Positions 5,961-12,723 of a DNA stretch of 40,312 nt are shown here, piece by piece. This DNA comes from Neoroseomonas soli. GTDB lineage: Bacteria; Pseudomonadota; Alphaproteobacteria; Acetobacterales; Acetobacteraceae. The notes beneath the pieces are model-generated. The model had not been told where the DNA came from and ran no database searches. It saw only the letters and a program-made list of their open reading frames with translations. Both the position numbers and the translations under genes were made by a program. Numbering within the stretch: the stretch's first letter is position 1; the number at the start of each line of letters is the position of its first letter. The stretch is from contig NZ_JAAEDM010000044.1 in NCBI RefSeq assembly GCF_018129065.1, forward strand, positions 1 to 40,312, read 5' to 3'.

Positions 5961-8194
<2,234 letters not shown>

Positions 8195-8251
8195 GGAGTG
8201 CCTTGTCGGCACGCCGCGCGCCGCTGTCCAGAGGGTTCGCCGCAGGTCTGA

Positions 8252-8821
8252 TCATGACCAGCCGAGACGCAGGGCGCGGGGGATGTGCTTGATGCCGCCG
8301 GCCCTTCGGTGGAGGTGGCGGAGGGTGCGCAGGAGGGCGGTGTAGGGGCCGTGTGCCGCCGTGGCGCGCGGGGGCGGGGGCAGGCGGAGGTTGCGCCGCA
8401 GGTTTTCGGACAAATCGGGGTCCGGGACCTTCGAGGGCGGGCCATTCAGGGCCTGGAGGAAGCCGAGGCGGCGGATGAGGGCGATGAATTTCAGCCCTCG
8501 GAGCCGGATGGCGCGGCGGCAGGCGCGGAAGATGCGGGGGGCGATCTCTCGGAGCGGGTGGTTAGGACCAGCGTCCTTGATGGCTTCGAGAAGCTTTTCC
8601 CACAGGCCGGCATGGGTGAGGCGGCGGAAGTAGCGGGAGACGGTGTCGGGCTTGCCGTGTTCGGGCGGGAGGCAGCGCCAGGGAAGGGTGGTGGAGGCGA
8701 GGTGGAATATGGCGTTCATGCGGGTGCGGAGGTCACCGATCTTGCGGCCGGCGGGGGATCGGGGGAGGATGTAGGGGAGGAGGGCGTGGAACTGGGTGGG
8801 GGTGAGAGGGGTGCAGCGCAT
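8252..8821 (-). CDS. Stand-alone transposase-type HTH protein (DUF4096-like)
   Basis: 189 aa. Residues 5-80 match the N-terminal HTH domain of IS5-type transposases (DUF4096 pattern): LTPTQFHALLPYILPR, RMNAIFHL, LPWRCLPPEHGK, TVSRYFRRL, GLWEKLLEAI. In a full transposase a DDE nuclease domain follows. Here the rest is a basic helical region (about 85-125, RACRRAIRLRGLKFIALIRRL) and a Pro-rich tail with no DDE residues. So it is either a remnant that kept an open frame or a domesticated DNA-binding protein. It is GC-rich like the host genes, unlike the AT-rich DNA upstream of it. I see no terminal inverted repeats around it. It reads toward purL, 57 bases away. Confidence 0.6.
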   Translation of the reverse strand: MRCTPLTPTQFHALLPYILPRSPAGRKIGDLRTRMNAIFHLASTTLPWRCLPPEHGKPDTVSRYFRRLTHAGLWEKLLEAIKDAGPNHPLREIAPRIFRACRRAIRLRGLKFIALIRRLGFLQALNGPPSKVPDPDLSENLRRNLRLPPPPRATAAHGPYTALLRTLRHLHRRAGGIKHIPRALRLGWS

Positions 8822-8850
8822 TACGAATGGCTAGCATGTAGTAATAAAAT

Positions 8851-8992
8851 AGGAAAAAATTCCGTTTTTGCCTTGTTGCGCGGTTCGTCCGTGTGGCAAA
8901 ACCCACTAAGTGCCACCCCGGTTCAACCCCAAGATCGAGTCTGGCGGCCAAATGTACCGCCGGATGCCTCGGTTGCGGCGGAATTTTTTCCT
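8851..8992. repeat. 142-bp element bounded by a 14-bp inverted repeat
   Basis: The arms AGGAAAAAATTCCG (8851-8864) and CGGAATTTTTTCCT (8979-8992) are perfect reverse complements. Between them lie two further potential hairpins: GTGGCA/TGCCAC at 8893-8916 with a 12-base loop, and GGCGG/CCGCC at 8943-8961 with a 9-base loop. No target-site duplication is evident at the ends. It could be a miniature inverted-repeat element, a structured leader or a small RNA belonging to the operon that starts at 9166, or a regulatory loop. It fills most of the 344-base gene-free stretch 8822-9165. The remainder of that stretch (8993-9165) is very AT-rich and probably holds the operon promoter, but no -35/-10 pair is convincing. 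Confidence 0.5.
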
Positions 8993-9165
8993 CAATCGAC
9001 CGGTAAGAAAAAACACACAACTAAAATCTTATTAGAGCTCTCTTCGCGGAAATTTAACGATAATATAGCACCATCATATGTGTCATTTTTCATAAATTTC
9101 AGCGAGTTTGGCCAGAGAAAGAGTTTGCGCATTCATTATGTACGTTAATTGTTGGGGGGGATAAG

Positions 9166-9621
9166 TTGATCACGATAGGCATCAGAGCTGCTCCGTCGGT
9201 CGTGACGTTCGCAGTCTATGATTTCGCCAAGAAGGAGGTGGTAAACGTCGAGCAAATCAGGATACCGGCGGCCTTCTCGATCCCAGATCGCTTGAAGTAC
9301 TTGCGAAGCAACCTTCTAGACGTCTTGCGCGAATTCAAAATCGAAAAAGCGGGTGTCCGCGTGACCGAACCCTTTGCCCGGAATCCAAGCGTCGAACGAA
9401 TTCAGATCGAAGGTGTAATTCAAGAAGCATTCGCAAGTAGCGAATTGAAGGCATACTATGTCGGGCAGATTTCTTCGATTTCTGCCCGCGTGGGAATCGA
9501 AAGAAACGAATTCAAGCCTCTTGTCGAGGGTAAAACCAGTTACGGTGTAGAGAACTGGAAGGGCATGTCCCAAGAGGAGCGCGAGGCCATTCTCTGTGCG
9601 ATGGGAGCAGTCAATGTTTAA
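9166..9621 (+). CDS. Predicted RNase H/RuvC-fold protein, first gene of the kinase operon
   Basis: 151 aa from a TTG at 9166 preceded by a seven-G run and ATAAG; no ATG in the frame would serve, so the start is moderately sure. I know no named family for it. The layout resembles RuvC/RNase H-like proteins: strand ITIGIRAAPSVVTFAVYD, a second strand VVNVEQIRIP, helix DRLKYLRSNLLDVLREF, strand KAGVRV then TEP (Glu68), helix RIQIEGVIQEAF, strand LKAYYV, and a last helix EEREAILCAMGAV. Where RuvC has its first catalytic Asp there is Arg7; Glu68 and Glu140 could match later acidic sites. It may be a non-catalytic nucleic-acid-binding form. It is AT-rich compared with its surroundings, which suggests transfer. 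The stop overlaps the kinase start by 8 bases. Confidence 0.65.
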   Translation: MITIGIRAAPSVVTFAVYDFAKKEVVNVEQIRIPAAFSIPDRLKYLRSNLLDVLREFKIEKAGVRVTEPFARNPSVERIQIEGVIQEAFASSELKAYYVGQISSISARVGIERNEFKPLVEGKTSYGVENWKGMSQEEREAILCAMGAVNV

Positions 9622-10657
9622 GCCGTACAATAAGGCGCAGTTAACATTTGATCTTGTTAAAGAAATTGGCCAGAGCGGACGAAATTCAAAGACGTATATA
9701 TCTCGTGATCATCAGCTTGATGCTGAAATTGTTATTAAGCAAATTGCTAAAAAAGAATTGGCCTCGCCAGAAAATTTCTTCGATGAATCGAAAGCGCTGT
9801 ATGCCAGCGCTCATCCGAACGTCGTTCAAATTCACTATGCTTGCGAGGATGCAGAATCAATATACCTCGCGATGCCTTATTATCGCAGAGGCTCAGTCAA
9901 GGAGATGATCACGGGCAAACACATGACCGTGCGTGAGGTCGTGGCTATTGGGTGTAACGTGTTGACCGGACTACACAACATTCACTCGAAAAAACTCATC
10001 CATTTCGATGTAAAACCCGACAACGTGCTTATCTCAGACCGGGGAGAAGGCCTTCTATCCGATTTTGGTTTAGCGAAGCAGATGAATTTTTCTGGGATCG
10101 CTGGGCAAGATCGCCTTTACACTCCGATGACGCCGCCCGAGGCCACCAGGGGCGACCATTTTGACGTGACTTTCGATATCTACCAAGTCGGACTTACGTT
10201 TTACCGAATGTGCAACGGAAATGATGCTTTCTACGAGCAACTCCAGAAATATCGTCCGCGGACGTCCTTCGATCGCGATGCCTTTCGATTTGATGTTCGC
10301 AACGGCAGATTTCCGGATCGGAAAACTTTCGCGGCGCATGTCCCGTCCAAGCTGCGGAACATTGTAAAGAAGTGCTTAGCCCTGAAGCCGGATGATCGAT
10401 TCCAGTCAGCAATAGATTGTGCCAACGCTTTGGCGCTGGTCGACGGCACGACATTGGACTGGCGCCTCTCGGAAATTAATGGTACCAGGATCTGGAGCAA
10501 GAACGAAAATGGAACATCTTATGAGCTGACGGTGAAGGCGGATGGGGAGGCCACATGCTACAAATCTGTGAACGGCGGGAATCCTCGACGCGTCAGCGAT
10601 GGGTGCGCTTCTGCGATGAGTGAAAAAGAGATCACGAGCTTCCTGGCTTCCTATTGA
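9614..10657 (+). CDS. Eukaryotic-type Ser/Thr protein kinase with extra C-terminal domain
   Basis: 347 aa from the ATG at 9614, with GGGAG six bases upstream; a GTG at 9596 is possible. Kinase landmarks are all present: glycine loop EIGQSGRNSKTY (18-28, loose), Lys42 in IVIKQI, helix-C Glu58, catalytic HFD at 130-132 (Phe for the usual Arg), Asn137, DFG at 150-152, PPE at 174-176 and Asp188 in the FDIY helix. It should therefore be active. HFD rather than HRD suggests no phosphorylation-dependent activation loop. After about residue 280 comes a 65-residue region, probably beta-rich (LDWRLSEINGTRIW, SYELTVKADGEATCYK), of unknown function. There is no membrane segment or PASTA repeat, so it is cytoplasmic. 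Codon use is AT-rich, unlike the flanking host genes. The 8-base overlap with the upstream gene indicates coupling. Confidence 0.88.
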   Translation: MFKPYNKAQLTFDLVKEIGQSGRNSKTYISRDHQLDAEIVIKQIAKKELASPENFFDESKALYASAHPNVVQIHYACEDAESIYLAMPYYRRGSVKEMITGKHMTVREVVAIGCNVLTGLHNIHSKKLIHFDVKPDNVLISDRGEGLLSDFGLAKQMNFSGIAGQDRLYTPMTPPEATRGDHFDVTFDIYQVGLTFYRMCNGNDAFYEQLQKYRPRTSFDRDAFRFDVRNGRFPDRKTFAAHVPSKLRNIVKKCLALKPDDRFQSAIDCANALALVDGTTLDWRLSEINGTRIWSKNENGTSYELTVKADGEATCYKSVNGGNPRRVSDGCASAMSEKEITSFLASY

Positions 10658-10851
10658 TGCAGAGGATTGGAAACAATTCGGGTAAGTACGTGAAGCGTTC
10701 GTCCCTGGTGACGCGTCCAAATGACGGTGAGAAGCTGGCTCAGTTACGCCCCTCCGCCGAGCGAGAGCGGGAATTCATGACCGCTCCGATCGACGACAGT
10801 TTCTACATGAAATTTCGTTCCATTAGTGGCCGGAGCCGCACTAAGAGCTGA
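10657..10851 (+). CDS. Possible small protein coupled to the kinase gene
   Basis: 64 aa. Its ATG overlaps the kinase stop (TGATG), which is the main reason to consider it real. The product is basic and polar (GKYVKRSSLVTRP, EREREF, MKFRSISGRSRTKS) with no signal peptide, membrane segment or motif I recognise. Base composition is intermediate between the kinase and the host DNA. It may be a genuine third gene of the operon or a chance frame; there is no independent evidence of translation. Confidence 0.35.
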   Translation: MQRIGNNSGKYVKRSSLVTRPNDGEKLAQLRPSAEREREFMTAPIDDSFYMKFRSISGRSRTKS

Positions 10852-11312
10852 GTAGTGTCAATTGGTGACCGTTTCGTCTGCCTTCCCAACGGCGTGATTT
10901 GCCCGTGCCAATTTGCACTATGCCCTACAGACTGACGGGTGACGTGCTGTGCGTTCAACCGGTCGTATTCTCGGTGTTCCATGTCTCGCCCTGGACGTCT
11001 GGCATGGTCGCGGAGTCGCCACCTTGGGCGCTTCGATCCCGTCCGCGGGACGAACTGACAGATCGAAGGTGCAGGAAACTAAGTTTCCTGCCGGGGTGCA
11101 GGGGCAGCGCCCCTGCGAAGCGCCCTCCGCGCCCGGCGGCACTCTCGCCGGGCCATGGCACCCTTGCCGAAGCGAGCGCGTCCGCCGGGCGTTCGAACAT
11201 CGGCGGGCCATCCCCCCATCGCCCTACCGGGCTACACTCCCCACATGGGGCGCAGCGATGCTCCGAAGGGTCACGCCTCCCGTGCCGGGGCTGGCTGAGA
11301 AGGGCCTCTGTC
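10852..11312. other. 461-base gene-free region at the right edge of the accessory segment
   Basis: Composition returns from AT-rich to host-like GC across this stretch. I see no credible gene in any frame; the frame running into pcm from about 10899 codes for a low-complexity Arg/Pro/Ser-rich product typical of non-coding GC-rich DNA. The recognisable contents are the three consecutive palindromes at 11071-11153, described separately. No direct repeat matching the left edge of the segment was found by eye. Confidence 0.6.
11071..11153. repeat. Cluster of three perfect palindromes (REP-like)
   Basis: Three hairpins follow one another. GCAGGAAACT-A-AGTTTCCTGC lies at 11071-11091 (10-bp arms). 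GCAGGGGC-AGC-GCCCCTGC lies at 11098-11116 (8-bp arms). GCCCGGCG and CGCCGGGC lie at 11131-11153 (8-bp arms, 7-base loop). Dense serial palindromes in an intergenic region are typical of REP/BIME-type interspersed repeats, and they may also stop transcription leaving the kinase operon. Whether this cluster recurs in the genome cannot be seen from one window. Confidence 0.55.
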
Positions 11313-11990
11313 ATGAAGCCGATGGACGAGCGCCATTTCGCGATCCTTCGCCGCCACATGGTGGAGGTGATCGCGATCCATGTGGATCTGCTGGGCGACG
11401 AACTCCGCACCGACGCCCTCGACCCGCGCGTGATGGAGGCGATGCTGCGGGTGCCGCGGCATCTCTTCGTGCCGCTGCCGCTGGTGCCGCACGCCTATCA
11501 GGATGGGCCGCTGCCGATCGGCTTCGACAAGACGATCTCGCAGCCCTTCATCTGCGCGCTGCTGGCGCATCTGCTCGCCCTGGAGCCGGATCATGAGGTG
11601 CTCGAGATCGGCACCGGGCTCGGGTATCTGGCGGCGATCCTCTCGGAGTTGGCGCGGCAGGTCTGGTCCGTCGAGATCGTCGAGGAGTTCGCGACCGAGG
11701 CCGAACTGCGGCTAGGGCAGCTTGGCTATGCGAACGTCTCGGTCCGCGCCGGCGATGGCGCTCGCGGCTGGGCGGAGCATGCGCCCTTCGACCGCATCGT
11801 CATGTCGGCGGGCGCGGAGAAGGTGCCGCCGGCGCTGCTCGAACAACTCCGGCCGGGCGGGCTTATCGTCCTGCCCATGGGGCCGCCGGATGAGCAGCGG
11901 CTGGTCGTGCTGGAGAAGCGGGAGGCCGGGGCGCCGGGGAAGACCGAGTCGATCCCCGTGCGCTTTGGCCTGCTCGAGACAGTGATCTGA
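11313..11990 (+). CDS. Protein-L-isoaspartate O-methyltransferase family protein
   Basis: 225 aa from the ATG at 11313. Family features are the N-terminal helix ending with RVPRHLFVP, the PLPIGFDKTISQPF substrate-loop motif, SAM-binding motif I EVLEIGTGLGYLAAIL, and the post-II DRIVMSAGAEKVPPALLEQL segment with GGLIVLPMG. Pcm methylates isoaspartyl residues as a repair step. Many alphaproteobacterial members differ in the loop residues that read isoaspartate, so activity on that substrate is not assured. It is GC-rich and host-like, convergent with purQ, and lies between purQ and the accessory operon. Confidence 0.88.
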   Translation: MKPMDERHFAILRRHMVEVIAIHVDLLGDELRTDALDPRVMEAMLRVPRHLFVPLPLVPHAYQDGPLPIGFDKTISQPFICALLAHLLALEPDHEVLEIGTGLGYLAAILSELARQVWSVEIVEEFATEAELRLGQLGYANVSVRAGDGARGWAEHAPFDRIVMSAGAEKVPPALLEQLRPGGLIVLPMGPPDEQRLVVLEKREAGAPGKTESIPVRFGLLETVI

Positions 11991-12015
11991 CGGGCGGGGG
12001 CCGGCGGGCGCCCGT
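11990..12015. terminator. Hairpin between convergent pcm-family gene and purQ
   Basis: ACGGGCG and CGCCCGT form a 7-bp stem around a 12-base GC-rich loop, starting at the last base of the pcm-family stop codon and ending 12 bases before the purQ stop. There is no T-run. A two-way terminator is inferred from its position. Confidence 0.35.
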
Positions 12016-12027
12016 GGCTCCGCCGCT

Positions 12028-12723
12028 TCAGGCGGCGACGAACGCGTCTGCCAGGCTCTCGAACATGGGCAGCCCGTCCGTCCCGCCCATCAGCGGGTCC
12101 ACCAGGTCTTCCGGGTGCGGCATCAGGCCGCAGATCCGCAGGTTTGGCGAAAGGATGCCGGCGATGTTGCGCGCGCTGCCGTTGCGGTTGGCGGCCTCGG
12201 TGACGGTGCCGTTCTCGTCGGTGTAGCGGAAGGCGACGAGGCCTTCGCCTTCCAGGCGGTCGAGCGTCGCGTCGTCGGCGAAATAGTTGCCGTCGCCGTG
12301 GGCCATGGGGGCGCGGAAGATGGCGCCCTTCTGCCAGCGGGAGGTGAATGCCGTGCCGGCGCGCTCGACGCGCATGTGGCAGTCCATCGAGAGGAAGCGG
12401 AGGGAGGCGTTGCGCAGCAGGCCGCCGGGCAGCAGGCCGGCCTCGATCAGGATCTGGAAGCCGTTGCAGACGCCGAGGATGTGGCCACCCTTCGCGGCGA
12501 AATCCTTCACGTCCCGCATGATGGGGGACTGTGCGGCCATGGCGCCGCAGCGCAGGTAGTCGCCATAGGAGAAGCCGCCGGCGAGCACCACCAGGTCGAG
12601 ATCCTTCGGCAATTCTTCCCGGTGGAAGAGCATCAGCGGGTCGCGGCCGGTCACGCGCTTCAGCGCAGTGCGCATGTCGCGTTCGCGGTTGGTGCCCGGG
12701 AAGACGATAACGGCGGATTTCAT
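12028..12723 (-). CDS. purQ: Phosphoribosylformylglycinamidine synthase subunit PurQ (glutaminase)
   Basis: 231 aa, the usual length. Class I glutamine amidotransferase that supplies ammonia to PurL. The nucleophile is Cys86 in GVCNGFQ; His203 and Glu205 of the PHPED motif complete the triad. [13 protein letters not shown] forms the oxyanion region, and the N-terminus has the FPGTNRE motif. It follows the small membrane-protein gene after 41 bases and is the last gene of a purC-purS-x-purQ run. Its partner purL is 3.8 kb away beyond the accessory segment, in the same orientation. Confidence 0.97.

What the first reader, a model, noticed from the sequence alone, without database searches (positions are those of the whole stretch)
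9166..10851. Candidate undescribed system: RNase H-like protein plus active Ser/Thr kinase, possibly with a third small protein
Seen: an AT-rich operon in GC-rich DNA, with gene 1 overlapping the kinase gene by 8 bases and a 64-aa frame overlapping the kinase stop. Family knowledge: the kinase keeps its Lys, Asp, Asn and DFG residues, and kinases of this type occur in bacterial abortive-infection and signalling systems. Inference: the pair is a transferred two- or three-gene module in which the kinase regulates, or responds to, a nucleic-acid-binding RNase H-fold partner; phage defence or mobile-element control would fit. I know of no named system with this composition.
Basis: partly seen in the sequence, partly recalled or inferred. 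Interest (0 to 1): 0.85.

Follow-up and report, generated by a model that had tools for sequence, protein, structure and literature searches.

The report
Dead-resolvase, kinase and small-protein operon
Three small bacterial genes travel together: a DNA-junction protein that has lost cutting residues, a protein kinase related to one that a prophage uses to abort infection by a rival phage, and a tiny conserved third protein; the set is probably a phage-defence switch.

Summary
Window 9166-10851 (GC 0.50 against 0.71) is a three-gene operon. Gene 1 (151 aa) has a confidently predicted RuvC fold, but the two catalytic acids that could be aligned are arginines (R7, R65), identical in 50 of 50 aligned relatives, so it is probably a dead nuclease. 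Gene 2 is a complete Hanks-type kinase with an invariant activation-loop tyrosine. Gene 3, the 64-aa frame, is real: 37 of 42 loci keep an N-x4-[YH]-x2-R motif just behind the kinase. Genes 1 and 2 stay together in Pseudomonadota, one cyanobacterial and one Cytophagales MAG, plasmids, and phages of E. coli and Bacillus, whether the search starts from gene 1 or from the kinase.

It is not wholly undescribed. The kinase is a full-length homologue of Stk of 933W-type lambdoid phages, which carry the same pair; papers state that 933W Stk aborts HK97 infection. I found no print on the dead-RuvC partner or the third gene (open-licence library only). In the window's genus the module sits in a purL-purQ hotspot where relatives carry other cargo. 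Best reading: an abortive-infection switch; gene 1 as sensor and gene 3 as kinase partner are inferred.

The parts
9166..9621 (+). Gene 1: RuvC-fold protein, 151 aa, probable pseudo-nuclease (R7 and R65 in place of two catalytic acids)
9614..10657 (+). Gene 2: Hanks-type protein kinase of the 933W Stk family, 347 aa, with a small C-terminal beta-beta-beta-beta-alpha domain (284-347)
   Evidence: Pfam Pkinase E 6.6e-38; phrog_2361 E 4.5e-68; AF2 pLDDT 89.7; residues
10657..10851 (+). Gene 3: small protein of 64 aa with motif N-x4-Y-x2-R and a C-terminal FYxxF-like motif
   Evidence: tblastn at the same place in other genera; motif in 37 of 42 loci; codon-position pattern
8822..9165 (.). AT-rich stretch ahead of the operon; presumably holds the promoter
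   Evidence: position only; promoter-like sites do not exceed shuffles
8252..8821 (-). Context: DUF4096 (IS4/5 transposase-like) frame at the left edge of the hotspot
   Evidence: Pfam E 2.3e-14; homology with relatives ends here
11060..11115 (+). Context: short repeat at the right edge, also found beside purQ or inside the spot in relatives

Best explanation
A horizontally moved three-gene phage-exclusion (abortive-infection) module built round an Stk-family kinase. Seen in the sequence: a RuvC-fold protein with arginines where two catalytic acids belong, a kinase with all catalytic residues, and a small basic protein with conserved motifs, encoded head to tail with overlapping ends. Inferred: gene 1 no longer cuts but still recognises a recombination intermediate or a phage recombination protein; on infection it activates or releases the kinase, which autophosphorylates (Y169 is the obvious site) and phosphorylates cell proteins, stopping cell and phage. 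Gene 3 is inferred to be the kinase's partner, substrate-adaptor or brake, docking through its Tyr/Arg motif.
For: The homologous phage kinase is reported to abort HK97 infection (PMC3564112 passage; PMC3681748 passage; PMC6356687 passage) and its phages carry the same gene 1 directly upstream. Pair linkage from both directions: 34 gene-1 loci, 32 with a full or near full-length kinase behind; 7 of 7 kinase-first viral contigs; the five best plasmid kinase hits. Rare, patchy presence: 1 of 35 genomes of the genus, that one being the window's own. Different cargo at the same spot in 5 of 9 fetched relatives. DarTG directly upstream in two loci. R7/R65 invariant; gene 3 conserved; distances of genes 1 and 2 correlate, r 0.861.
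Against: No function was tested. The original Stk papers could not be read. Eight of ten neighbours examined singly had no PADLOC match, and neighbours also include ordinary genes such as LysR regulators, so most loci are not shown to be defence islands. The phage copies from E. coli and Bacillus lack the gene-3 motif, so gene 3 may not be essential. The residue match of gene 1 to RuvC rests on a weak local alignment (E 0.053). Correlated distances show joint descent, not contact.
Confidence: 0.6

Rival explanations
1. Toxin-antitoxin-like arrangement: the kinase is the toxin and gene 1 and/or gene 3 keeps it silent by binding it; a phage protein, or loss of the partner, releases it. Gene 1 then senses no DNA.
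For: Tight overlap of the genes and invariant non-catalytic surface residues would fit a bound inhibitor. Gene 1 is present beside a cut or apparently broken kinase in three places (L017; L061; one Klebsiella plasmid, kinase match in three pieces), as expected if only the kinase is costly.
Against: One would expect less constraint on a pure inhibitor: gene 1 is as conserved as, or more than, the kinase. The RuvC fold needs no keeping for inhibition alone.
Confidence: 0.22
2. Lysogeny or mobile-element control: the module regulates its prophage or element and only secondarily affects other phages.
For: In Stx-type phages the pair lies behind cI and before N; in a Providencia plasmid it lies in a phage-like region behind a LexA-type regulator.
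Against: The window copy has no phage gene beside it: neighbours are purL, a DUF4096 frame, a PCMT gene and purQ. Most loci were found in chromosome contigs, though I did not screen each for prophages.
Confidence: 0.08
3. Gene 1 is an active Holliday-junction or related nuclease switched by the kinase.
For: RuvC fold; four invariant glutamates E68, E82, E87, E140 could in principle form another metal site.
Against: The catalytic Asp of the GxD motif and the beta-4 Glu align with R7 and R65, identical in 50 of 50.
Confidence: 0.05

Closest known systems
Stk of 933W-type lambdoid phages (exclusion of HK97)
   Same: Full-length homologous kinase, same upstream RuvC-like gene with overlapping ends (7 bases there, 8 here), a small frame behind the kinase. 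I compared with phi24B, P27 and others annotated stk or 'similar to bacteriophage 933W', not with the 933W record itself.
   Different: Phage copies stand behind cI; the window copy is chromosomal with no repressor beside it. The 54-aa frame of the phage lacks the gene-3 motif. In the phi24B record gene 1 is not annotated.
RuvC Holliday-junction resolvase
   Different: Arginines in place of two catalytic acids; the host has its own ordinary RuvC
Stk2 of staphylococci and KKP of Pf prophages
   Same: Protein kinases reported in phage defence (PMC11341870, passages)
   Different: That passage calls Stk2 a single locus; KKP is kinase-kinase-phosphatase (abstract start). Neither is described with a RuvC-fold partner in what I saw.
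CapK/CapS
   Same: Kinase acting in bacterial immunity, switched by single-stranded DNA (PMC13373217, abstract and passages)
   Different: CapK resembles anti-sigma kinases (GHKL domain), its substrate is a repressor; 'RuvC' and 'RNase H' do not occur in that text

Membership tests
Kinase family of 933W-type phage Stk | Homologous kinase over the full length | tested here: met
   36.6% identity over residues 1-332; phrog_2361 E 4.5e-68
Kinase family of 933W-type phage Stk | RuvC-like gene directly upstream with overlapping or near-touching ends | tested here: met
Kinase family of 933W-type phage Stk | Tyrosine kinase activity, triggered by infection, that excludes HK97 | not testable with these tools
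   Reported for 933W Stk in passages; invariant Y169 is only suggestive
Prophage immunity-region stk operon (cI-stk) | Gene order behind a phage repressor | tested here: not met
   No repressor frame next to the window module; the window copy is therefore filed with the kinase family, not with the prophage operon
RuvC resolvase | RuvC fold | tested here: met
RuvC resolvase | Catalytic Asp of GxD and beta-4 Glu | tested here: not met
   R7 and R65 at these places (local alignment with 18 RuvC proteins, E 0.053), 50 of 50
Hanks-type protein kinase | Lys, alpha-C Glu, HxD, Asn, DFG, PE of the APE motif | tested here: met
   37 of 37; HFD in 36, HLD in 1, so non-RD
MADS6 kinase (methylation-associated defence) | NCBIfam NF047741 cut-off 460 bits | tested here: not met
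   109.8 bits
PD-T4-6 kinase | Membership beyond the shared kinase domain | tested here: inconclusive
   PADLOC E 1.7e-39, kinase domain only, no cut-off given
KKP | Two kinases and a phosphatase | tested here: not met
   One kinase; no phosphatase family among the three proteins

The most novel reading that the evidence does not exclude
A three-part bacterial immune relay working by tyrosine phosphorylation: a RuvC turned into a non-cutting detector of phage recombination (junctions, or the single-strand annealing protein itself) switches on a non-RD kinase, which signals through the conserved Tyr of the small third protein. HK97 gp41, which I recall as the Stk trigger (no call confirms it), is by my reading of the gene order in the HK97 record the Erf-like annealing protein, which would make a recombination sensor the natural partner.
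Probability: 0.25. Interest if true: 0.82.

Novelty: new variant of a known kind. Interest (0 to 1): 0.58.

Why it matters
A prophage kinase reported to abort infection turns out to be one form of a module found in chromosomes, plasmids and phages of several phyla, with a dead RuvC and often a third small protein. These are concrete candidates for the missing sensor and partner of Stk, testable by removing one gene at a time. PADLOC 2.0 has no match for genes 1 and 3, so the unit is at present not recognised as such by that catalogue.

Tried and rejected
Third frame as chance: rejected. A protein-database search with its alignment gave only 19 hits. Genes 1 and 3: no Pfam, PADLOC or NCBIfam family over a cut-off, and none of any library at E 1 or better for gene 3. 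No PDB sequence match to the gene-1 profile up to E 1. No Rfam family in 8000-12100; promoter- and terminator-like sites not above shuffles; no direct repeats of 14 bases or more in 8600-11300, so the way of insertion is open. Global hhalign of gene 1 against RuvC failed; the local one covers residues 3-72 only; that E140 stands for a third acid was not shown. In one search the rows span the kinase domain; the C-terminal domain was barely tested. CapK/CapS considered and set aside.

Limits of the counts. Neighbour test: 31 of 34 loci (L009, L010, L025 left out as near duplicates), the two nearest predicted frames a side of at most 900 aa, 108 proteins; per-protein hits are not shown by the tool, and several models can hit one protein. 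Its control is 108 of 128 frames from 17 stretches of relatives (20 asked, 3 absent), not from the same hosts. Trio table: 45 loci given, L017, L034 and L061 dropped for cut, missing or broken kinase, 42 left. Distance test: four near-identical loci (L009, L010, L019, L058) dropped, 38 left. Alignment A5 holds 28 of the 41 small proteins and leaves out the four present but motif-less ones (L030, L038, L039, L060), so its invariance is by selection stronger than in the whole set. Codon test: 12 chosen pairs, some sharing a member.

Full report
OBSERVATION. The three frames lie at 9166-9621, 9614-10657 and 10657-10851 on the + strand. The first two overlap by 8 bases; the last two meet as TGATG. 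Module GC is 0.501 against 0.710 for the rest of the window (profile). In the contig collection the first two genes are lower in GC than their flanks by more than 0.03 in 30 of 34 loci, as for DNA that moves between genomes.

GENE 2. A complete Hanks-type kinase, AF2 pLDDT 89.7, with a beta4-alpha domain at 284-347. The catalytic loop reads HFD in 36 of 37 and HLD in one (non-RD type), and Y169 in the activation segment is identical in 37 of 37. PADLOC and NCBIfam matches are to the kinase domain in general.

GENE 3. tblastn with the window protein finds it directly behind the kinase in several other genera, best E 3.9e-11. By position, 41 of 42 loci have a small frame behind the kinase, and 37 of 42 keep N-x4-[YH]-x2-R near its start, against 0.85% of shuffled sequences. 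In the 28 that I aligned, chosen without the motif-less ones, N6 and R14 are identical in 28 and Y11 is Tyr in 27. Substitutions fall 171/140/291 on codon positions 1/2/3 over 735 codons, a coding pattern but weaker than that of genes 1 (232/146/709 of 1811) and 2 (556/441/1646 of 4155). The five without the motif are L030 (kinase end altered), L037 (no small frame found), and the phage copies L038, L039 and L060.

CO-OCCURRENCE. A gene-1 scan of one genome per species gave 34 loci: mostly Alphaproteobacteria, three Betaproteobacteria, one cyanobacterial MAG and one Cytophagales MAG (MAG assignments may be wrong). In 32 a full or near full-length kinase follows; in L017 it is cut short; L034 ends at the contig edge. 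Kinase-first: 7 of 7 viral contigs found with the kinase alignment have gene 1 directly upstream (in L061 the kinase frame is broken). Of 420 plasmid records with any kinase match, the five best-ranked are the same five that hold gene 1; the other listed ones (12 of 420 listed) are at 25-29% identity. Distances of genes 1 and 2 correlate at r 0.861 over 38 loci, 0 of 2000 permutations reaching it, and 0.738 without the five most distant. The family is rare: 2 of 385 genomes of the class, 2 of 398 of the phylum, 1 of 35 of the genus, each count including the window's own genome; the other two carry the kinase as well.

KNOWN RELATIVE. Stx-type lambdoid phages carry cI, a small gene, the gene-1 homologue (annotated hypothetical or RuvC-like), stk, a 54-aa frame and N. 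In the phi24B immunity-region record gene 1 is not annotated. 221 of 5426 complete E. coli genomes hold at least 80% of this region, on chromosomes. Two SPbeta-type Bacillus phages carry the pair too. Papers state that the 933W kinase is co-transcribed with cI and aborts HK97 infection (PMC3564112, passage), is activated upon HK97 infection (PMC3681748, passage), and blocks HK97 (PMC6356687, passage). The original, Friedman et al. 2011, is not held. That HK97 gp41 is the trigger is recalled; in the HK97 record the gene between those noted Gp40 and (after two overlapping recombinase frames) Gp43 is the Erf-like annealing protein.

CONTEXT. Nine same-genus stretches were compared. In six, homology on the purL side runs through a DUF4096 frame and ends near window 8806-8822. 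Five of these six have different AT-rich frames next to that point (L066, L067, L068, L069, L070); the sixth (L072) has only the frame and the short repeat before purQ. In L073 the matched purL and purQ blocks are 55 bases apart; L065 has a GC-rich frame between; L071 shows no purQ in the stretch. Of the five cargoes, two are ATPases that match defence models (L067 best E 4.6e-37, L069 best E 1.4e-24) and three have no PADLOC match. Such ATPase models are generic: mad3 alone matches 5 of 108 control proteins. So it is a hotspot of foreign genes, part of them possibly defence. Elsewhere the module lies directly behind DarTG-type genes in a Mesorhizobium plasmid (DUF4433 and macro-domain proteins; no third gene is listed there, the table being incomplete) and in a Hyphomicrobiales MAG (DarG E 1.3e-104, DarT E 7.5e-37).

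NEIGHBOURS. Among 108 neighbours of 31 loci, 22 of the 25 PADLOC families shown (of 124) have best E of 1e-60 or better, among them CBASS effector/SAVED (two proteins), SduA (two), DarG, and DNA methyltransferase models, many of which probably hit one protein. In 108 control proteins 6 families match, best E 1e-36. Against: of ten neighbours looked at singly only the DarT and DarG of one locus matched, and Pfam shows many ordinary genes (LysR, TauD, MFS). Defence genes are thus enriched near some loci, not the rule.

MECHANISM. Shown: composition, order, overlap, loss of catalytic residues (by alignment), kinase integrity, conserved third gene, patchy spread. Reported for the relative: phage-triggered kinase and aborted infection. 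Inferred: gene 1 as detector, gene 3 as kinase partner, tyrosine as target. The detector reading is favoured by the fold and by the recalled trigger; a paper also says that a staphylococcal Abi system, citing the kinase paper of Depardieu et al. 2016, targets phage recombinases (PMC11846896, passage). The antitoxin reading stays open (rival 1).

NOVELTY. Searches for print: (open-licence PMC only; listings, and passages of the papers named). None that I saw names a RuvC-like partner of Stk. The kinase and its exclusion are known; the three-gene, widespread unit with a dead RuvC appears not to be described there. Hence a new variant of a known kind.

Noticed in passing
window 8213-12027 (between purL and purQ): Insertion hotspot in this genus beside a DUF4096 frame; five of nine fetched relatives carry different AT-rich genes there.
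   Followed up: partly
window 11060-11115: Short repeat with a palindromic stem, also at the edge of the hotspot in most of the fetched relatives and at three further partial places in the own genome.
   Followed up: partly
own genome C167 and C100 (L001, L003): Two further Hanks-type kinases besides the one of the window.
   Followed up: no
L074:6227-9492 and L036:6074-9486: The module stands directly behind DarT/DarG-type genes in two hosts.
   Followed up: partly
L017:8449-8700, L061:6001-7036, plasmid NZ_CP103421.1: Gene 1 present beside a kinase that is cut short, frame-broken or matched in three pieces.
   Followed up: no
window 11418-11987: A PCMT (protein-L-isoaspartate O-methyltransferase) domain gene between the module and purQ, with no DNA match at that place in the fetched relatives.
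   Followed up: no
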